Positions 6,598 through 54,563 of a stretch of DNA of 64,000 nucleotides are shown in pieces (the first letter of the stretch is position 1; every line of letters starts with the position of its first letter). The translations under genes were made by a program, and so were the position numbers. Source of the stretch: Odontesthes bonariensis (Eukaryota > Chordata > Actinopteri > Atheriniformes > Atherinopsidae); contig NC_134515.1 of assembly GCF_027942865.1 (NCBI RefSeq), positions 20,606,227-20,670,226 of the forward strand. The letters run 5' to 3'. The notes beneath the pieces are model-generated. The model saw only the letters and a program-made list of their open reading frames with translations, searched no databases and was not told where the DNA came from.

Positions 6598-7892
6598 TTA
6601 ATTGCCAACAGCTCCATTCTGGTGTCTAGTTGTAGACAGGCAGAAGTAGCAGCACATCAAACTTTAACATCATAGCAAAGTTGTTCAGTATGTTAAACAA
6701 AATGAATAACAGTAGTTATAACATCAGGTGTCTGAATATGGTAGGTTTTCTATGTGCAGTTGTTACAAGCATTATGAGTAAGGACCAAATTTTGACTGGC
6801 TATGGTTGTGATAGACATTCTTGAAAGTACTCATTACAATTTTTCAACATCCAGGGGGGTTGCTCTAATCTATTCTTAACTGTTCATTCGGCCTGTCTGA
6901 TTCTCTGTTTTCATTATCATCATTAAACCATCCCTGGTCTGAAACTATTAACTTTATTTGGCTGAAATTCAATAATGGAAGTAAATAAAAGCCTTAAAGC
7001 AGGGCTCAGTAATACGGGGTTTGTTTACCATGCAATACACACCCCAAAGCTGTAGGGGGAGCTCCGTAGGAAATAGGCGACAGTCTAGCCAGACTGTCGT
7101 AAACCCACTAGAGGCAATTTACGGTTTATTTTTCAAGACACTGGCAGAGAGTTGGAGAAGACGACGGAGGTTCGCGATGTCTTCAAAGGTATGCAGTAAA
7201 AGTAATTATCAAAGCAGTGTAAAAGCAAAGAATGAATTGTAAACCATATGTGCATGTTTGTCTTGTACTATATCATTGTATGCGAAACGATGCAGATGCA
7301 CATGAGCCCTTTACGACCTGCCGTGAAGCAGTAGTTCTCGGCTCTCGTGTGTCGCGAGACTTCCAGAGCTAAACAAAGCACGCCGCGCCACGGGCAAAGT
7401 TGCAAGCGCTGTTTCGGGCTAGGGCCACCAGATGGAGATGGAAATGTCACCGTTTTCATCGGAACGGGTCAGCCAAGCAAACTGATGATTGCCAAGCAAT
7501 TTTATGACCATGAAAAAGTTGCATAGCATGTCTTTAACTTGGCTAAATGTATCACACTAAGCTGAAGTACGGCTATGAAAGGGTAGTAAACTGGACAAAA
7601 TGATCATTTGACTTTTGTGCTAACAACAAGCTGCTGTTTTTTTTAGTGAGAGGACACTAAAGAGAAGTTCTTTTTTTTGTTTCTGGATTCGTTTTTAATT
7701 TAAATCGGCTTTTGCATCTATACAACTAGAAAGATCTAAAAGTAAGAAAAGGACTCCGATTGGTTCGTTATTGCTTTTGAATTTTCACTTTTCAAATAAC
7801 TACAAAACAAGTTAAACCAAAATGCTGGAATGAATCAACCGAGTCAAGGGGCCGTGACTTGTTCTGTCAAAGAAGAACAGCAAGAGAGACAT
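6598..7892. other. Non-coding, possible eroded repeat
   Basis: No gene recognised. The segment from about 6993 (TTAAAG...) to about 7534 (...CTTTAA) has a GC-richer interior than its surroundings and matching TTAAAG/CTTTAA ends, suggesting another decayed TTAA-flanked element. The inverted match is only about 6 bp, so this is weak. Confidence 0.3.
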
Positions 7893-19149: not shown

Positions 19150-21494
19150 CCATCCATCCATCCATCCATCCATCCATTATCTTCCGCTGGTCCGGGGGTC
19201 GGGTCGCGGGGGCAGCAGCTTAAGCAGAGAAACCCAGACGTCCCTGTCCCCGGCCACTTCCTCCAGCTCTTCTGGGGGGACCCCGAGGCATTCCCAGGCC
19301 AGCCGAGAGACATGGTCTCTCCAATGTGTCCTGGGTCTTCCCCGGGGCCCCCATCCAGTGGGACGGGCCTGGAACACCTCACCGGGGAGGCATCCAGGAG
19401 GCATTCTCACCAGATGCCCGAGCCACCTCAACTGACTCCTCTCGGTGCGGAGGAGCAGCGGTTCTACTCCGAGCCCCTCCCGGATGACCGAGCTTCTCAC
19501 CCTATCTCTAAGGGAGAGCCCAGACACCCTGCGGAGGAAACTCATTTCGGCCACTTGTATTCGCGATCTCGTTCTTTCGGTCACTACACTGTAAACCCGG
19601 AATTTGTTTTCAATTAAACGTTTTAGTGTTCATTACTTATTCTATTATGTTTTGTAAAAATCTATGTAATAACTAAATCAAATTAGTTCTTTGGATTAGA
19701 AATGTGAAAATATACACTGCAATGATCATGTTAAGCAGAGATTACATATAAAGTTACGTTCTGTGAGGGAGGGGCGGAGCCTATTTGAAGTTCAACTGAG
19801 AGTCAAGACCTGTCCTGTGTGAGAGCGTGACCAGCTCGATTTTTGGAGAAAACTGAATTGTGTATTTAAAAATAAACTGTGGATGTTTTAAAGTAGTTTT
19901 AACGACACTAAGTAGACAGAAGAGTGTGTAAAGCAATTATTAAGATCGGTCTGGTTGCTAAACGTTTGCTAAAGGTTAGCTTAGGACTGCACCAGTCTTA
20001 ATTCATTATTGCTGCAGTGAATTATTTGTGTTAATTTTTATTTGTTAATTTCAATGTTTTCTGAAATAAAATAACTTGAACAATTTAAAAGTATTTTTTA
20101 ATTTCTTCCTTCCCATACAAATTTCTTTTTAAACAATATATTGTGGCGTGCTTTGGGTGTGTTGCCGCATTGCATTATGGGTGCTCTCTGTTCCCCGTTT
20201 ATGTGCTGTATTTAGTGCTGTGGTAGAGTTTGTATGTGTTTTATGTTTATGTTCTGTACGCAGTCACGGTGTAGTACAAGGTTTTTGTTCGTGTTGCATT
20301 TTAACTAAATCTGCACCATGACTGAAAGTGGTGAGATAGAAAGTTACAACCACTTGTTCGAATACATGTGGGTTGGTTGAAATTCACTATTTTTCCTGTG
20401 AATTGTCTGTCAAGATAAAAGTGCTTACTGCAGGAGGAAGTCTGGACTAAGCCTTTTCTTGCCTCCACCTCTACAATTACTAGAATGGTATATACAAACT
20501 CTAAATCAAAACAGTATAAGTCATTAATTAAAATTTGAAGACAATACATTACTTATATCAACAAATGATGTTAAGAAATGCTTTTATATATATTTATGTG
20601 CATTTGACCTAAAATGGTTGGCTAGACCTCAGAAAAGAGATAAGTTATGTGAACTAATGGTTTTGAGTAAAGGTTACTAATGTAAACTTGAATATGTCTA
20701 AGTTATCTATGCCAATACAACTTAAAAGGTTTAGTTTCATGTTTTGTAAAAACTTAAACGGGATAAGGCAACGGGTTTCCACGCGATTTTCTAGTAAACT
20801 CAACTAGTTCGGGTTAAGAGTGTACCCACAGCTCGTGACCATAGGTGAGGGTAGGAACATAGATTGACCGGTAAATCGAGAGCTTCGCCTTCTGGCTCAG
20901 CTCCTTTTTCACCACGACGGGCCGGTGCAGAGCCCGCATCACTGCAGACACCGCACCGATCCGCCTGTCAATCTCCTGCTCCATTCGTCCCCCACTCGTG
21001 AACAAGACCCTGAGATACTTGAACTCCTCCACTTGGGGATGGATCTCATTCCCGACCCGGAGAGAGCATTCCACCCTTTTCCGGCCGAGGACCATGGTCT
21101 CAGATTTGGAGGTGCTGATTCTCATCCCAGCCGCTTCACTCTCGGCTGCGAACCGCTCCAGTGAGAGCTGAAGGTCACGGCCCGACGACGCCAACAGAAC
21201 CACATCGTCCGCAAAAAGCAGAGACCCGATTCTGAGGTCGCCAAACCGGACCACCTCAACGCCCTGGCTGCGCCTAGAAATTCTGTCCATAAAAATTATG
21301 AACAGAATCGGTGACAAAGGGCAGCCCTGACGGAGTCCAACCCTCACAGGAAACATGTCCGACTTACTGCCGGCAATACGGACCAAACTCTGACACCGGT
21401 CATACAGAGACCAAACAGCCCATATCAAGGGGTCCGGCACTCCATACTCCCGGAGCACCCCCCACAAGAGTCCCCGAGGGACACGGTCGAACGT
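19150..21494 (-). mobile_element. 5'-truncated RTE/Rex-type LINE, split by a later insertion
   Basis: On the minus strand, 21467-20825 encodes the reverse-transcriptase C-terminal half. It shows GLRQGCPLSPILF, the catalytic FADDVVLL, and YGHELWV motifs. The same ORF resumes at 19584-19177 with RSQLRWLGHLVRMP and a GRPRTHWRDHVSRL block, near the end of the protein. The 3' end is a (GGAT)n tail at 19150-19180. The insertion is bounded by a 10-bp duplication, AAATTAAAAT (19140-19149 and 21495-21504). The 5' part of the element is missing. The reading frame is interrupted by the 1.24-kb element described next; otherwise it is well preserved, so this copy is fairly young. The RTE/Rex label is from memory of fish LINEs, not from a search. 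Confidence 0.85.
19587..20822. mobile_element. TIR DNA element inserted at TA within the LINE
   Basis: The ends are imperfect inverted repeats: CACTGTAAACCCGGAA at the left, and the complement of CACTCTTAACCCGAAC at the right. TA flanks both sides (19585-19586 and 20823-20824). Removing the element and one TA leaves the LINE reading frame continuous, which fixes its borders. It is about 1.24 kb, AT-rich, with no transposase-like frame, so it is non-autonomous. A TA duplication points to the Tc1/mariner superfamily or a relative. Confidence 0.8.
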
Positions 21495-21504
21495 AAATTA
21501 AAAT

Positions 21505-34419: not shown

Positions 34420-37400
34420 TAAATACATTTTTTTGGAGAATCTTTCACCATATTTTCTATATTTGAATATAGCTTCCTTCCATCCTGTACATTGGCACAT
34501 ATGCCTCGTGTCTGTTAGCATTAAACTCTCAGCTCCAATTCATTTTAGGTCCACACCATTAATGTCAATGCTCGTCTGTTTCCGGTTGTGCTGCAACCTT
34601 GCTGTTGTAGCCTCTGGAAAATGCACGCACCCCAGCTGCATAAACACACACACGGGCACCGTGGCGAATGCATATCTGCCAGAGTCAGGACACCTTTTGT
34701 TGTGAACTGGGTGGAGGACTAATGAGAAGCGCTGTGGGCCTGAGGCATGTGCACACAAACATCCACCCACACATGTTCACCTATAAGAGCACACCCAACA
34801 CGAGATTCAGCACGGCCGAAGCATCAGCAGACTCCTGTTACCAAGACATAGCTTACATTGTTCATTTAAGAGTGTTTTTCTGCCCGTGTGTGTCTGTTTT
34901 TCAAGAGTATAGCAGTTTGTGTTTGAGATGTGTGTGTGTGCTTGTGTACTCGTCGGGGATAAAGGGCCGGCTGTGTTGCGATGTCTCTCGTTTCTGTGGA
35001 AAACCCCAATGCAAGCCACACCGCATGAGTCAGCAAGGGACCAGAAGCAGTTCAAGGAGTGGGAAGACACCCACCGATGGATCTATTTACAATGTGTGTG
35101 CGTGTGTGTGTAGTGTGACTGCAGAGGCAGGTGTAAATACACACACAACTTCATGAATGGCAGCTGTGAAGGTGCAAATATATGTGCCATATTTGCCACA
35201 TGGCTTCAAAATTCAGTTTGTCTGTATATACTCACATTCCTGCGTGGAATGCTTTGTCTAAACATTGTAACCTCTGTCCAGGGCTTCTGCTCTTCTCAGC
35301 AGATAAAAACACATGTGGACGTGCACTTTCATTAAACCCGATCTTAGAAGCTACAGTTGAATGAACGCTTGTCAGAGCTGGACTCCAAATGTTTTCCTTA
35401 TGTTCACAGCACTTTTATTGTTAGTAGAGCAGTCATTTGATCAGTTTATCAGTGCCCATAGAAAAAAAATGGATAAGAGCTGTTGTTGACTAAGATGTTA
35501 GTCAGTGACAGACTGAAAAACTTAAAAAAGGTTATAAGAGCCATGCACACTTCTTTGGGGTTTTTGACAAGATGGAGCTGCTGTGTGAGTGTTAAACCAC
35601 TAGAGGTCTGTCTCCCCTGTTAAATGGAGAGAACCTCTGTGTTCACCCATACTTGTATTACCATCATGTCTCATATGGGTGTAGCCTGGGAATTCCCATG
35701 CTGCTTTGCGCGTGATTTCATTCACCATCTCATCGAGATGTGGACACGTCAGCCAGGCTAATATGGGTGTGTAAAATAATGTAAATGTAAGGCTACATTT
35801 TTAGCCAGGTTTTGATATTTCAATTAAATACAACTTCGGTTCCTTTCAGGCTTTTATAGAAACACCTTGTTAGAGATTAGTTATGTGGTTCCAATAGTTT
35901 TGTCCTCTCCTAAAAAAAGTAAATGCTGTCTCACTTAAAAAAACTCAGACAGGTCTAAACCAACGCCGGAAAGAAAGGAGGATCTTTGGCCACTCTACAG
36001 CCAACAAGTCTTAAGAACATTGTACTTTGGTAATATAAATCAATGATACAAATCTAAAAATTGTTACTTACATTTGCATCTTTTTAGATACAACGAAGGG
36101 AGGAGACGGGGCCCACTTTGAAGGCAGATGGAAGAACTTTACATTTTTTTTGATAAAAACTCATAAAGAACACATGATTTAACTTTAAAGGTGTCTCAGA
36201 AAAAAATGATTGCACAATAATAACTACAGTTATTATTCATATTATCATACACAGTGATGTAGTGCAGGATATGTACAGGTTTATGGAGTGTACCCACTTA
36301 TTTTTCAGTCTTCATAGAGTGTACCTACTTCTAAATCCCCTCTTATTATGACCACCATGTGCAATACTGTGTGGCAAATCAGTTTTATTTATAAAGTCAT
36401 GACCTGACTGTCTCTGCTTTTCACTGGCTAATACTAGTAGCCTTTATTTGAAGGGGTTGGTTACATTCATGCATGGGATTTAGAGCATTTATTTTGTACT
36501 GATCCTGACTCTCTAACGTCATCCCTAACATCAGAAGGCATGTGACAATATGCAAAGATTTGTGGCCCTTTTTATGATCAACTAAATATGGCAAAGTACT
36601 CTTACATGTCACTGTTTATAACACCAAGTGGGTATGTTTTGCTGAATAGGTTGTTCAAATAAAAATCTCCAGAGGTTAAGAGCATTCCCACTTCTCCAGG
36701 GACCACTGCACATACATATTGTTAATTCATTTAGAAAACTGTGTAGAAGCTTGTGTAGAAGTGAGAATGAAACCCCAGTGTTAGTGTCCCCCTCTAGCTC
36801 AGAGTGCAGGGGATCCGAGAGGCAAAGGGAGGACAAAGAAGATGATGACCCAGGTAGCAGCAAAAAATTCAGTGGCTGCCATCCACCCTCCACTACCGCC
36901 TCTAGCACCGACACTAACAGTGAAACAGAGAAGGTAGAAATAGAGTCGGCCTCTCCTCTACCTCTGTGCCAAGGGAGAGAAAAAGAGAGGAGGATGAAGA
37001 TGATGCGAGAAGCAGCAAACGTTTGAGATTTTTTACAGAAGTTGCTACCATAAACATCATTTTGCTGCCATACATTATAGAGGCAGTACCTGTTCCCACA
37101 CTGGATAATAAGACTGGCCTGCTCAGCTTCTAATATAATACTTGAGTATGATTCCAGTTTAGCTTTTTCTTCTGTAGAGAATGGAAATATAAACGATCTG
37201 TTAAAATCTTGTTTGATTTGATTTATCATGTATCCATGATTCTTTAAATAAAAGTAATCCACATTCTTAATTACATTCAAGATATTTTGTCCTTTCCATA
37301 TCCAAATGAATTGAATATTATGTCCTTAATTGTGCAATCTAATGGGTGTTCATATATACATATACATATATAGATAATGTCTGCATTATTTTTTGTAGTT

Positions 37401-48915: not shown

Positions 48916-51900
48916 AATATACAGTCAGATGACACAATTTACAACTTTAGCACAGCTTCATGTTTTGCTTGTCAAATAGACTGCTAAGTGCTTGCTAACT
49001 GCTGATGCCGCAGCTTATCAAACCAGGAAAAGAAACAGCATCCTCTGGTGTCTAAAGGCTAAAAGTCACCACCTTTGTGCCAATAAAAACAAAGCAAACA
49101 AAGCACTTGCTCATCAGACTCATCAGTCTGAACGGAAAGAAAATATGTTCATTGGAGCTCACCCAAAGTCAGATTTTTGAAAAGCTGGTTCTTATCCTAT
49201 GTAGCAGGAAATTTACCTAAACTTTATCTCAGACCAGTTTGAATGGCGCCTCCACCAACGGGAACTTTGAGCAGGCGGCCAAACCTGCCTTCATCAGACA
49301 GAGCTCAAGGACTATCTCCTTCAGGGTAAACACGCACACAGATGCATCCACACATTCTCCTGGCTAAATGCCAGCAATGCCTTTTCTCATTTGACTGTAA
49401 AATTATGATTTGATATCACATCAGCTGTCAGACTATCAGCTCAGGATAATTTGCTTTGGGCTCATGTTGATAGCTGAAGCAATATTTATCGGCTTTTATT
49501 GCGGACTGACAGCCTGCTTTATGAACACCCAAACCCATCACATCAGGGGAGACGTTTGTGCAGGTCTTTAGCTGCTGACATTGAGACATCTGTAAGGACT
49601 GCGGGACTGACAAACACTCATATAGGCTTGTTCATCCACAGATGATGAGAAAGAAAGAAGAGGAGAGCCCACCGCTGCAGAGGAGGTAAAGAAGCATCCT
49701 TGTCTGCAATTTGAGGTGCTCGTATCTGCTTCTCTGTGTTTGATTGCCGACTGGTTTATTCTGTCGTAGTGCAAGTGTGAGGATGGCCTCCAAGAAGTTT
49801 GAATCTAACACAGTAAGATGACCGTTTTCATTTTCTTTCACTTCATTTAAAACAAGTTACCGATGCTTGCTGTCAATTTGTTGCCCAGCACTTTTTACAA
49901 CAAGCTTGTACGGAGTGTTTATAGGCTCTGTAGCTTAAATTCTGCCTGGTTTTTTGATTAGGACCAAAATGAGGATGAGGAGAAAACGTCATCTTTCCAG
50001 AGAAAGTGAGTTTGTACAGTCAACTTTTAAATTCACATATGTTTTATTATGTCTTTAGATGTTCAAGTGATTGTAGTTTTAGTCAACACAAAAAGTTACA
50101 ACTGGAGAAGTACATGCATGCATTCTGTCTTGTAGCACCAAGCAGAGAATTTCATCCAGATCCATCCAGGAGAAGATGGAGAGACTGGCTCAGGCAGCAC
50201 AGGTTAGACTCCATGCAAAACTTCCTATTATCCCAGAGTTATTTTCTTATTAATTGGGCTAATTTTGTATCTCTTTTTAGATTGTAGTCATTCTGTCATT
50301 GTTATGGAGTATTTGAGATCCGTTTGTGGATTTGAGTCTCTTAGAAGTTGTTTGTGTCCTAAGTTTCCTTCTGTTTGGTTTAAATTTTTCTGATTGTTTT
50401 ATCTGTGTTTTCCATTTCTTCTTTGTTGCTTTGAGATCTTATATAATACTGTGCAAGTCTTAAGGCAGGACATCACTTTCAGATGCTGTTCATCCACTGG
50501 AGATGTTTTTTTAAGGCTTTGCACATCATGCCAAGATATGTCAACTTTTCTGCTGATAGCTCTTCAGGAATCACTGTCAAGCTGTGTCAACTGTGGCATT
50601 TTTCATATAGGCAACTAAAAAAAGTTGAAAAAGTTGTGCGTCTTCATGACAGGATGCTTGTAACAGGTGCCAAAAGATTAAATCTAAAATGTGTTTTTTG
50701 TTTTTCTGTTATATGTTGACTGGTTCATCACTTGAGTTCAATATCTTTTTTGGGTTTGAGTGATTCATTGGTCAGTGTCAAGCAGCTTGACAAACAAAAA
50801 CCAATACACTAAAAATGGTCAGAACTGAACTGAAAATGAGTCACAAACCAGTCGAAGTTCAAAGAGAAACTTTGAAAAATCTTTAGAAAGCACGGAGAAC
50901 TATTGCTCAAAACCAAGTATGGCTCCTTTGAAGCAAAAAGAAATGAGGGGTGGCTCAAGGTTTTTGCACAGTATTTTTGCACAGTACTTTTTGTCATCAT
51001 TTTGTGTCTTTTTGTTTTGGTTCAGTCATGGGTCTGAACTAGCCTGGGAATTCCCATGCTGCTTTGCGCGCGATTTCATTCACACTGCAAAGGCAGCCTG
51101 GAAACCACCGCCCTTATTTTTGCCTGAGTTAGGGAACCAATCACAGAACGGGGGGGGGGGTGGCAGCAAGATGATGATGAAGCTTGTAGAGTGTTAATCC
51201 AACATGGCAGCGGACACAAAGTTACCGTTCGATGCAGCCTTAAGCCTGGTTTATAGTCGGTAACGCAAGACGCAAAGCAAGACGCAAGAAGAAACGCAAG
51301 CCCTTGCGCGGTTGCAAGCCCCCCATTGCGAGCTTGCGTGTGTCACCTCAATTTTCTAAACTTCACGCAAGAAAAGACGCAAGCCTACTACTTGAAAACG
51401 ACATACTCATCGATCAGACAGCATGCAGAGCGTTTACACACAGTGCACTTCACTCCTGCCCGAGCCGAAATCAGCCAGCCTGAAAAGCTGATTTCGCTTA
51501 AGCTATAAACTCTGTAAATATATAACTTTAGCAACATTTGAAACATTTTCAGGCGAGAAAGTAGTCGTTTAGACCCCCAAGGTGTTGAAAATCTGACAAA
51601 ATACCGGCTATTTACAAGAAGAAGAAGCATGAATCACTCGAAGAGGTCCTGGCGGTGAATTTCCTTTCATCATAGTAGGCTTGTCATTGAAAAAACCCGC
51701 TACTCAACCTACTCTCCTGGCAGTGAATCGCCATGCAGCACACGCAAGCGCCGGCAAAGCTAAATGAAGTATAAACGTCTCGAGCCATTAACATACGCGC
51801 AAGAAGAAAGCGCAAGGGCAGTTAAAAGAAGTATAACTCAGCCTTTAGAAAGTGTTTTAAAGGGGCACTAGGTAGCATTTTCACCTAAAATTATAGCCTT

Positions 51901-54563
51901 CAGGAGTTTAACAAAGGTTAAACAAGTCAATAGTAAGCGAATGAAGCCTGTCTCGCTCCCAACAGGGGTCTGTATGCTGAAAATCCCATATGTGACTTCG
52001 GCAGGAGCGACCCGCTTCTGAAGTGTCGTGATGCGCGAGAAGAGTCGTTTGTGTTTACGGCACTTAGCTAGGTACTGTATGCTAGTTGTAGTTGTAGGCT
52101 ATGTGTTCGCTTGCGTTGAAGAGCCAACACCAAGCGTTTCATATTCTGCCTTTCACAGACTGAATATGAAACGTTCGATGTTGGCACTTCCCATCTTTGT
52201 GAAATTTCTCCAAGCGTGATCTTGTTCATTTACCATAGTGACCTGGGTTTTAGATCGTGAAGAGACCGGTGATGACGGTGCTCTAATTCCTCCTGAGTTC
52301 GAGACGTAGCCTAGCTTCAGAAATACACGGACTGACCTGATTATAATAAGAATAGCGTTTTGATCCGAACAAGAATTGTTATCTACAAATGAAAATTGAT
52401 TAATTTGTGATTGTAATCGGAATAGTGTAGCGCTAGTCTGCGTTTATTGCAGCGTGTATGTTGGTAGTGCCTGCGCGCATCTGTCTAAGATGTAACTTTT
52501 GTAAGTGTCTGCTAATACTAAGGAATCACTCCACGAATACACCATGATGAGGGAAGAATCCCATTCAAGATCAGCAACAGTCCATCCATACATCCATTAT
52601 CTGCCGCTTGTCCGGGGATCGGGTCGCGGGAACAGCAGCCTGAGCAGAGAAACCCAGACGTCCCTGTCCCCGGCCACTTCCTCCAGCAACAGGATTATAG
52701 CATATTATCTTGAGTTCTCTCTTCAGAAAATCTCTGATTATAGTATCTTCCGTGGGCAGTCTACACTTGTGAATCAGATGACCTAACTGCACTGACTAAA
52801 TAACACAATGGCAGCATTCGCCACGATGGTTAGTTAGTGGGTGTGTACAGGTGGGCATTTTTACGACAGTGTAGAATTTCAGTTTGACCAATAGAGATCG
52901 CTATACTGCCGCTAAACTACCTTGTATCCCTTTAAGTAGCTTAGAAAGCAAGTTTACTTTTAAAAAAGAGCAACGTTTGGTGTTGAAAGATTTCATTGCC
53001 TTCTTCCTCGTCCAATTTCTGTCGCTCTACATACGTCATCTGGTATAAGTGATACAATTGGCTATGAATCGCGCGCAAAGCAGCATGGGAAGAACCAGAC
53101 GCCATTTGATAGACATTCGTAGCACCCAATAAACGGCTCTAGGCATTCGTAAACCATGCCTCAAATACGAGAAAATGCACACCTAGTTCCCAGACCACCA
53201 TCTCATCGAGATGTGGATGCGTCAGCCAGGCTAGGTCTGAACCGGGGCACCACTAAATCTCTGGGTCACTGGTCCTCTACCTTACACATTCCATAATCCT
53301 TTAGCTTACTAGCTTTACAGACAATCATATCCTTGTTCTGGTCTACATCAGCTGACGACATTACCATTGTTTTTCTCTGACTTTGGCTTCCTGAAAACCC
53401 TTTAGAAATCCGAACTGACTCGATCTCCAGACGTGACCCAGAGGACCCTGTTCCTACTGGAAGAGGTCTCTAGGAAGAGAGGCCTTTTTGAGAAAGAGCA
53501 ACCAGTACAGAACCCCACCAGTCCTGGAGTTTCCAGACAAGTAAATCTAACGGCACATTCATGATCTACTTCTTGGTTGTGTGACAGATGTTCATGCACT
53601 ACAGATTAACAAATACTTTCACCATGTTTGATTTTAACAGGAATTCAGGGGCTTCACCTCAGGAATATCAGATCGGATCAACCGCTTTCTTAATAAACCC
53701 AACCCAACTGGATCCTCACTCAGTTCTACTGTAAGGTTAACCTTTAATCTGGCTAACTGTGTAATAGCTGTCATCACATATTTAGTAAAACTGTAGCATT
53801 TGGAAGCCAGGGGGCAGTGGCACTCCATCAGCTGTGTGTCCAAGTTGAACAGGATGTAGTTTGCAGCTCCTGCTGCTTACATTTGATTGACTAAAGTCAT
53901 CATTGGGGTATTTATGTAAAAACAAGGTGGTTTATCGTTAGAGTTCAGGGGTAAGATAGTAAACTCAAGACAATCAGATTACATCAGCTATTACTTTAAG
54001 AAATACAGTTTCTACTCTACTTATGTGCTCAAAGATTTGTGATAATCTGTCCATTTTCTGTTTTTAGGACCTGAGACATGTGGACATCACTAGTAAGAGG
54101 AGTCTGTTTGAGAACAGAGGGGAGGAAAGCGTCTCAAAAGTCAGCCCTGGAAAAAACAAGTGAGCGACACTCATGTACAACGTACGGTAAGTCTACTGAC
54201 CTATATTTTCTGGTCAATGCCATGGAAACAAATAGAACAGCCCTGAAATTGAACAAATCAACAACAACATTATTTACCAGCATACTGTTATACGCACACA
54301 GGAATCTGACCTCTGCATTTTACCCTCCTGAAGCCATGAACACATTACAAGCTCTTAGCCTTTCATTCACAATAACATAACTTCTTATTGATTATATGAA
54401 ATCCATAAATATGAAGTGAATATTTCATTCCGTAATCGATTCCTGACTCTGTGTCTGTATTCACAGGAGACTGACTGACCGCTTTGCTTCTTCAAGTTTT
54501 TTTTTCTTTTTTTCTTCACTGCCACGGGACTACACGGGAGGAACAGAGATTAAAGCATGCTGA
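45005..54563 (+). CDS. lad1: Ladinin-1
   Basis: Fourteen coding exons: 45005-45042, 45588-45770, 46231-46492, 47950-48029, 48687-48858, 49233-49325, 49642-49685, 49770-49812, 49962-50005, 50136-50202, 53406-53540, 53641-53730, 54068-54159 and 54467-54563. They give 479 residues in one frame; human LAD1 has about 517. The N-terminus MSISRKNWSALSRLARQWTV and the acidic/basic EREKRRR block match LAD1. Other conserved pieces are SSRTISFR (about 269-276) and two LFE motifs (RKRGLFEKE about 367 and SKRSLFENRG about 425). The rest is Ser/Pro/Thr-rich, mostly disordered, with charged segments. LAD1 is an epithelial protein linked to basement-membrane anchoring filaments (linear IgA disease antigen) and to actin-based keratinocyte signalling. 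The final exon encodes a Phe-rich tail of low resemblance, so the exact C-terminus is the least certain part. Confidence 0.92.
48868..48913. repeat. lad1: (CA)n microsatellite next to a splice donor
   Basis: Twenty-three CA units begin 9 nt inside lad1 intron 5, just after the exon-5 donor (GAG|GTTGTT at 48858/48859). Confidence 0.97.
51243..51844. mobile_element. Nested TTA-flanked TIR element
   Basis: The ends AGCCTGGTTTATA and the complement of AGGCTGAGTTATA match at 10 of 13 positions. TTA borders both sides (51240-51242 and 51845-51847). The interior repeats GCAAGACGCAAG-like units (51264-51300, 51365-51382 and 51797-51815) in both orientations. A PIF/Harbinger-type MITE is the likeliest reading. 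There are no coding frames. Confidence 0.6.
51861..52931. mobile_element. Nested TTAA-flanked TIR element
   Basis: TTAA lies at 51857-51860 and 52932-52935. Inside these, the left end AGGGGCACTAGGTAG and the complement of the right end (AGGGATACAAGGTAG) match at 12 of 15. It carries a LINE 3' fragment and has no transposase. The TTAA borders and AGGG start resemble the foldback element at 7897-8579. Confidence 0.65.
52581..52683 (-). mobile_element. LINE 3'-end fragment (same family as 19150-21494)
   Basis: About 100 bp match 19156-19263 closely (the CATCCATTATC, GGGATCGGGTCGCGG and CCCAGACGTCCCTGTCCCC blocks). It is bordered by a 9-bp duplication, CAGCAACAG (52572-52580 and 52684-52692). 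It is a severely 5'-truncated insertion with its 3' tail (GGAT repeats on the minus strand) at the left. It inserted into the TTAA element above. Confidence 0.85.

What the first reader, a model, noticed from the sequence alone, without database searches (positions are those of the whole stretch)
51040..53233. Three-layer transposon nest in lad1 intron 10
An outer element with TIR TAGCCTGG and GGTCTGAAC duplications contains a TTA-flanked element (51243-51844) and a TTAA-flanked element (51861-52931). The latter is itself hit by a LINE fragment (52581-52683, CAGCAACAG duplications). Target duplications are visible at every layer, so the order of insertion can be read directly. The outer family has 9-bp duplications, unusual for fish DNA elements, and may be undescribed.
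Basis: seen in the sequence. Interest (0 to 1): 0.7.

Follow-up and report, generated by a model that had tools for sequence, protein, structure and literature searches.

The report
Jumping-DNA nest and its parent
A short jumping-DNA element in a fish genome, itself carrying two other jumping elements, belongs to a large family of shrunken copies of a much bigger transposon with a helicase gene, and an intact-looking parent was found in the same genome.

Summary
The sequence features are real. The outer element (51040-53233, TAGCCTGG...CCAGGCTA, 9-bp duplication) belongs to a ~508-bp family whose exact 28-bp left end occurs 1,215 times in the assembly (pattern read backwards: 0). A second, 79-bp copy lies at 35682-35760 with its own exact 9-bp duplication. 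Of 22 copies, 15 have an exact 9-bp duplication by script, a 16th by eye. The copies are internal deletions of a 7,873-bp parent type; one locus (C14, exact 9-bp duplication) carries two open, convergent, spliced genes: a RecQ-type helicase (597 aa) and a DUF6589 protein (936 aa). Two divergent full-length relatives also have 9-bp duplications. Helicase plus 9-10 bp is how AcademH is described; Mutator and Merlin do not fit. The insertion order was misread: 39 of 39 other scored copies carry the LINE piece at the same place, and 11 places lack it, so it preceded its host element's landing here; the two inner elements lie side by side, so their order cannot be read. Probably a new member of a known kind; DUF6589 as transposase is inferred.

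The parts
51031..51039 (.). left 9-bp target duplication GGTCTGAAC of the outer element
51040..53233 (+). outer element: non-autonomous, internally deleted member of a RecQ/DUF6589 (AcademH-like) family; deletion breakpoints 306|7639 in parent coordinates
51040..51242 (+). left part of the outer element; includes the start of the helicase reading frame (ATG at 51204)
51240..51242 (.). left TTA duplication of inner element B
   Evidence: once in 19 of 20 family copies
51243..51844 (+). inner element B, 602 bp, family with many copies at 98-100% identity, TTA duplication (PIF/Harbinger-like by duplication only)
51385..51617 (+). segment of B that also occurs within another repeat
51845..51847 (.). 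right TTA duplication of B
51857..51860 (.). left TTAA duplication of inner element C
   Evidence: once in 20 of 20 family copies
51861..52931 (+). inner element C, 1,071 bp, TTAA duplication, termini AG...CT (Kolobok-like by duplication and termini only), member of a LINE-bearing subfamily
52572..52580 (.). left CAGCAACAG duplication of the LINE piece
52581..52683 (-). short LINE piece, inherited with the C subfamily; a longer copy with a reverse transcriptase frame lies at 19161-21497
52684..52692 (.). right CAGCAACAG duplication
52932..52935 (.). right TTAA duplication of C
53067..53091 (-). 25-bp inverted copy of the left subterminal sequence 51051-51075; the parent has the like at 12-36 and 7706-7730 (96%)
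53226..53233 (-). right terminus CCAGGCTA
53234..53242 (.). right 9-bp target duplication GGTCTGAAC
35673..35681 (.). left 9-bp duplication ATATGGGTG of the second copy
35682..35760 (+). second copy of the outer family, 79 bp, left and right parts joined at a shared CAC
35761..35769 (.). right 9-bp duplication ATATGGGTG of the second copy

Best explanation
The outer element is a non-autonomous, internally deleted copy of an AcademH-type cut-and-paste DNA transposon. The parent type carries two convergent genes: a RecQ-type helicase and a DUF6589 protein that is most likely the DDE transposase. These proteins, made by a parent elsewhere in the genome, recognise the short TAGCCTGG...CCAGGCTA ends and subterminal repeats, excise the element and join it to target DNA at positions 9 bp apart, so that gap filling leaves a 9-bp duplication. 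Repeated internal deletions of the parent (probably during repair after excision) made several short subfamilies that were amplified in trans. After one copy landed here, B (TTA) and C (TTAA, already carrying an old LINE piece) inserted into it independently. Shown: ends, duplications, family, a full-length parent locus, open reading frames, empty sites for B, C and the LINE. Inferred: that DUF6589 is the catalytic transposase, that it acts in trans, the role of the helicase, and the repair origin of the deletions.
For: Left end exact at 1,215 places, pattern read backwards 0. Exact 9-bp duplications in 15 of 22 copies by script, a 16th (L015) when its right end is placed by eye in the output; three more (L014, L017, L026) with one mismatch. 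The left part of the copies reads as a helicase N-terminus cut at differing points. One locus joins the family's left end, a RecQ-type gene, a DUF6589 gene and the right end (right 239 bp 99.6% to the family consensus) in 7,873 bp with exact duplication GCTTTATAC. Helicase: three exons, 597 aa open, DEAD and Helicase_C; nearest solved sequences of its 414-aa frame are WRN, RECQ4, RecQ, BLM. DUF6589 gene: eight exons, 936 aa open, PF20231 at 3.8e-23 in the last exon. 14 of 22 DUF6589 matches lie within 10 kb of a helicase match, each on the opposite strand (read). Two other helicase lineages, 11 of 11 copies, begin TAGCCTGG; one full element of each has an exact 9-bp duplication, GGAAAGATC and CGGTGAAGT. 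The motifs DNLDF, GGDRL and LEHLN are kept at all five loci compared. Helicase plus 9-10 bp is how AcademH is described (passage of PMC10045372).
Against: The AcademH paper itself is not held and no Academ transposase sequence was at hand, so DUF6589 = Academ transposase rests on helicase, duplication length and three conserved acids. The model of a DUF6589 relative (L060) was of no use (mean pLDDT 38.1). No RecQ match reached the family's own cut-off, being found exon by exon. The DUF6589 gene model was built by eye: a first join of five exons ran into stops, three small exons were then seen and added; their likes do occur at other loci. The parent's left 302 bp are only 85.8% like the family consensus, so this locus may be a sister rather than the source. 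Four of 22 copies have 4 or more mismatches in 9 by script (L012, L015, L019, L027); L015 is explained by a misplaced end, L027 lacks the last 21 bases, L012 and L019 are unexplained. Of three copies taken in list order, one has both ends and an exact duplication, two show no right end within 570 bp. The 20 fetched copies were best-scoring ones.
Confidence: 0.85

Rival explanations
1. The outer family is a Mutator-like (MULE) or Merlin non-autonomous element, and merely shares a helicase fragment.
For: 9-bp duplications also occur in MULEs (8-11 bp) and Merlin (8-9 bp).
Against: No MULE or Merlin domain in the seven frames of the parent that were scanned; termini are TAG, Merlin's are 5'-GG with inverted repeats of 24-462 bp, here the terminal inverted repeat is about 8 bp.
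Confidence: 0.03
2. The helicase/DUF6589 elements form a superfamily of their own, near but outside Academ.
For: DUF6589 is labelled of unknown function and the term is in 0 papers of the library; no Academ sequence could be compared; the start TAGCCTGG is kept across lineages.
Against: Helicase plus 9-10-bp duplication is what is written of AcademH.
Confidence: 0.1
3. The outer structure is a chance pairing of repeats, not one insertion.
For: Only short inverted termini; long inserts separate the ends.
Against: All 20 fetched relatives hold left and right parts within 480-538 bp, 19 of them with the right terminus; 15 of 22 copies have exact 9-bp duplications against about 5e-6 per pair by chance.
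Confidence: 0.01

Closest known systems
AcademH (Kojima 2020, Mob DNA 11:15; known here only through passages of citing papers)
   Same: Helicase-encoding DNA transposon of animals and fungi with 9- or 10-bp target duplications (passage and reference title in PMC10045372).
   Different: No sequence comparison was possible; here the second gene is DUF6589 and the family has over a thousand left ends in one fish genome, where a fungal survey calls AcademH low-copy (PMC10799480, passage).
KolobokH
   Same: DNA transposon with a RecQ helicase (passage of PMC9587614).
   Different: TTAA duplication, found only in fungi; here 9-bp duplications of varied sequence.
Mutator-like elements
   Same: 9-bp duplications are common (passages of PMC6446971).
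   Different: No MULE domain in the seven frames scanned, short terminal inverted repeat.
Merlin
   Same: 8-9-bp duplications.
   Different: Ends not 5'-GG, no Merlin domain in the frames scanned.

Membership tests
AcademH | encodes a helicase | tested here: met
   RecQ-type helicase gene, three exons, 597 aa, in the parent
AcademH | 9- or 10-bp target duplications | tested here: met
   9 bp exact in 15 of 22 family copies and in 3 of 3 full-length elements whose two ends were found, three lineages
AcademH | Academ-type DDE transposase | tested here: inconclusive
   DUF6589 gene with conserved D, D, E; no Academ reference sequence; model of a relative uninformative
KolobokH | TTAA duplication | tested here: not met
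   9-bp duplications of varied sequence
Mutator-like (MULE) | MULE transposase domain | tested here: not met
   no such match in seven frames of the parent at E up to 0.01
Merlin | 5'-GG termini | tested here: not met
   termini TAG...CTA; criterion from PMC8101967 (passage)
PIF/Harbinger (element B) | TWA target duplication | tested here: met
   TTA on both sides, once in 19 of 20 relatives of the host element; criterion from PMC4482050 (passage)
PIF/Harbinger (element B) | Harbinger transposase in a parent | not tested
   not sought
Kolobok (element C) | TTAA duplication and termini 5'-RR...YY-3' | tested here: met
   TTAA both sides, AG...CT; criterion from PMC9587614 (passage)
Kolobok (element C) | Kolobok transposase in a parent | not tested
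   not sought

The most novel reading that the evidence does not exclude
DUF6589, a Pfam family of unknown function, is the DDE transposase of a helicase-driven transposon group with 9-bp duplications and TAGCCTGG termini, and at least one intact, possibly working pair of its genes survives in a vertebrate genome next to more than a thousand of its deleted dependants. If DUF6589 proves not to be the Academ transposase, the group would be a new superfamily.
Probability: 0.5. Interest if true: 0.6.

Novelty: new member of a known kind. Interest (0 to 1): 0.45.

Why it matters
It ties a high-copy, coding-less fish repeat to a full-length parent with two open genes, which makes a helicase-assisted transposition system testable in vertebrate cells, and it suggests a role for a protein family of unknown function. 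It also corrects how such nests should be read: duplications at each layer do not by themselves date the layers, because an insert can be inherited inside the element that carries it.

Tried and rejected
Mutator and Merlin were considered and dropped on the parent's genes and termini. KolobokH was dropped on its TTAA duplication. A nuclease-type Academ (AcademX) reading of two other DUF6589 open frames (L060, L067) was suspected by eye from a neighbouring frame in L067; Pfam (none) and PDB sequences (one hit at E 1.4) gave no support, so nothing is claimed. Structure prediction of the L060 frame: mean pLDDT 38.1, unusable; no fold search was made. Related loci in viral contigs: 60 pattern matches, none confirmed. 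PHROGs with the last DUF6589 exon: no match. The term DUF6589 is in 0 papers of the library. Target preference: in the 15 exact copies A stands four bases after the duplication in 13 of 15 and T four bases before it in 10 of 15, a hint of a symmetrical target, but the sample is small; the later 18-row table has one row (C19) out of register by a base and is not used. That call also prints the C19 start off by one; the coordinates given here follow the register. The first joining of the DUF6589 exons failed and was replaced. A first script read only part of the loci and printed nothing, repeated. T2-type Kolobok motif: the paper tried has no such string.

Full report
What is in the window. A comparison with the whole window found a second, 79-bp copy of the outer element at 35682-35760, made of its left 44 and right 38 bases with CAC shared at the join, and with its own duplication ATATGGGTG. 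Two insertions at different targets with the same termini and 9-bp duplications already define a family.

The family. The assembly that holds the window (945 Mb, 187 contigs, window at C15:20606227-20670226) could be searched. The left 204 bases gave 1,646 candidates, of which 40 were scored and all 40 matched. I fetched 20 of the 21 places next in rank after the window's own; C28:3486918, which scores and measures as C28:3505970 does, was left out. All 20 hold left and right parts within 480-538 bp; 19 of 20 have the right terminus, L027 lacks the last 21 bases. The majority consensus is 508 bp. With the two window copies, 15 of 22 have an exact 9-bp duplication. Of the other seven, L015 is exact when its right end is placed at AGGCTA in the output; L014, L017 and L026 have one mismatch; L012 has four, L019 five; L027 has no right terminus. 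The exact 28-bp left end occurs at 1,215 places (603 + 612), the pattern read backwards at none. 21 copies average 98.3% (right 230 bp) and 98.5% (left 108 bp) identity to the consensus, but they are mostly the best-scoring ones. Of three further copies taken in list order, L074 has both ends and an exact duplication; L073 and L075 show no right end within 570 bp.

The parent. The left part of the copies contains a frame that in many of them reads MAADTTLPFDAALESVLSSLERKFTFKKEQRLALKDFIAKKDVF, cut at different points in different copies. I took this for a RecQ-type helicase N-terminus and searched the genome with TIGR00614: 40 matches, none over the family's cut-off since the gene is split into exons. 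Of the 30 loci returned, two that overlap (L034, L046) carry the family's left end directly in front of such a gene. Reading on, the family's right end follows: element C14:15022031-15029903, 7,873 bp, duplication GCTTTATAC exact on both sides, right 239 bp 99.6% and left 302 bp 85.8% like the family consensus. The plus strand holds a three-exon helicase gene of 597 aa without a stop with DEAD and Helicase_C domains; its 414-aa frame has WRN, RECQ4, RecQ and BLM as nearest solved sequences. The minus strand holds an eight-exon gene with GT-AG introns, 936 aa without a stop, with DUF6589 (PF20231, E 3.8e-23) in its last exon. The gene model was made by eye; a first join without three small exons ran into stops. 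No base was changed. A search with the last exon found seven places: this locus, three pieces at 94-96% (C25:26760271, C24, C6) and three at 69-71%: few parents, many dependants.

The wider group. DUF6589 has 22 matches in the assembly; 14 of 22 lie within 10 kb of a helicase match of the capped search, in each case on the opposite strand and converging (read). Helicase lineages with 44-59% identity over the N-terminal 36-46 residues also begin with TAGCCTGG, 11 of 11 copies in two lineages. For one member of each the right end was found: C19:2383777-2391919 (CCAGGCTA) with GGAAAGATC and C16:38550750-38560724 (TCAGGCTA, one change) with CGGTGAAGT, both exact 9-bp duplications. Exon by exon, the DUF6589 protein of C14 matches those at C19, C16, C25 and C1; all five loci keep DNLDF, GGDRL (followed by T, at C1 by S) and LEHLN. 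LEHxN is invariant also against the more distant frame L060.

What it is and how it works. A paper on another superfamily states that AcademH generates 9- or 10-bp duplications and AcademX 3 or 4, and relates this to the helicase and nuclease that they encode (PMC10045372, passage). The AcademH paper itself is not held. Helicase and duplication length fit; the transposase could not be compared. I therefore file the outer element as a non-autonomous AcademH member with that reservation. The most likely working: the DUF6589 protein binds the termini and subterminal repeats (a 25-bp inverted repeat near both ends is present in parent and window copy), cuts, and rejoins with a 9-bp stagger; the helicase assists strand separation or repair; deleted copies are moved in trans. 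In the 15 exact copies A stands four bases after the duplication in 13 and T four bases before it in 10, a hint of a symmetrical target. Deletion breakpoints fall into groups in parent coordinates (window, L014 and L022 306|7639; L012, L024 and L028 325|7643; L009, L016, L021, L025 and L026 about 266-268|7635-7637; others), so several independent deletions were amplified.

The nest. The 20 fetched relatives lack B and C; TTA stands once in 19 of 20 (changed in L020) and TTAA once in 20 of 20, which shows both as later insertions into this copy. B is a family of 602 bp: 2,836 candidates, 40 scored, 53 matches listed, of which 42 at 98-100% and 40 of these end to end, so it has been mobile recently. 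C: 477 candidates, 40 scored, all 40 at 98-100% over the 711 bases searched. A query across the LINE piece ran through it in 40 of 40 scored copies of 1,217 candidates (that query favours copies with the LINE). A query with the LINE left out gave 40 scored places of 456 candidates: 11 run through the junction, i.e. lack the LINE, and 29, the window included, are split there into two parts that overlap by the duplication (9 bases, in two cases 8) with a gap of about the length of the LINE piece. Thus the LINE piece inserted into an ancestor of a C subfamily, and C arrived in the outer element already carrying it. B and C are neighbours 16 bases apart, so nothing in their duplications orders them; B's slightly higher identity to its relatives suggests, without proof, that it is the younger. 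B also contains a stretch (about 51385-51617) that occurs within another repeat (L028, L014, L026).

Limits. No second species could be compared. That the host gene is lad1 and the intron its tenth was not tested; a troponin exon upstream agrees with the neighbourhood that I recall for that gene. Whether this exact family is already in Repbase or Dfam could not be checked. The search gave 13 papers for four Academ terms; one is a fish genome paper (PMC4705583, 'Academ transposon' once, seen in the listing only), none has AcademH in fish in its title. Of papers I saw passages only: PMC9587614, PMC10045372, PMC10799480, PMC6004289, PMC4482050, PMC8101967, PMC6446971, PMC10294476, PMC8290104. 'DDE', the link of Academ to a DDE transposase beyond the passage, and the repair origin of deletions are recalled general knowledge.

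Noticed in passing
G000:C14:14739600-14740804 and C7:18459687-18460892: Pairs of B elements stand head to tail with 3 and 2 bases between them, as if a B had inserted into the TTA duplication of another B.
   Followed up: no
51385-51617 (inside B): B carries a stretch that occurs within another repeat (L028, L014, L026), so B looks like a chimera that has since been amplified.
   Followed up: partly
L067 (C3:40169900-40174899) and L060 (C23:36087300-36090000): Long open frames (1,269 and 612 aa) with DUF6589 and no helicase match nearby in the capped search; a neighbouring frame in L067 looks nuclease-like by eye only, unsupported by Pfam or PDB sequence searches.
   Followed up: partly
19161-21497, minus strand: A longer LINE copy: 92% like the LINE piece inside C at its end, with a reverse transcriptase frame at 20814-21497 (PF00078, 2.1e-18).
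   Followed up: partly
52118-52190 (inside C): An imperfect inverted repeat (34-nt arms, 5 nt apart), found again in each of the 40 scored C copies.
   Followed up: no
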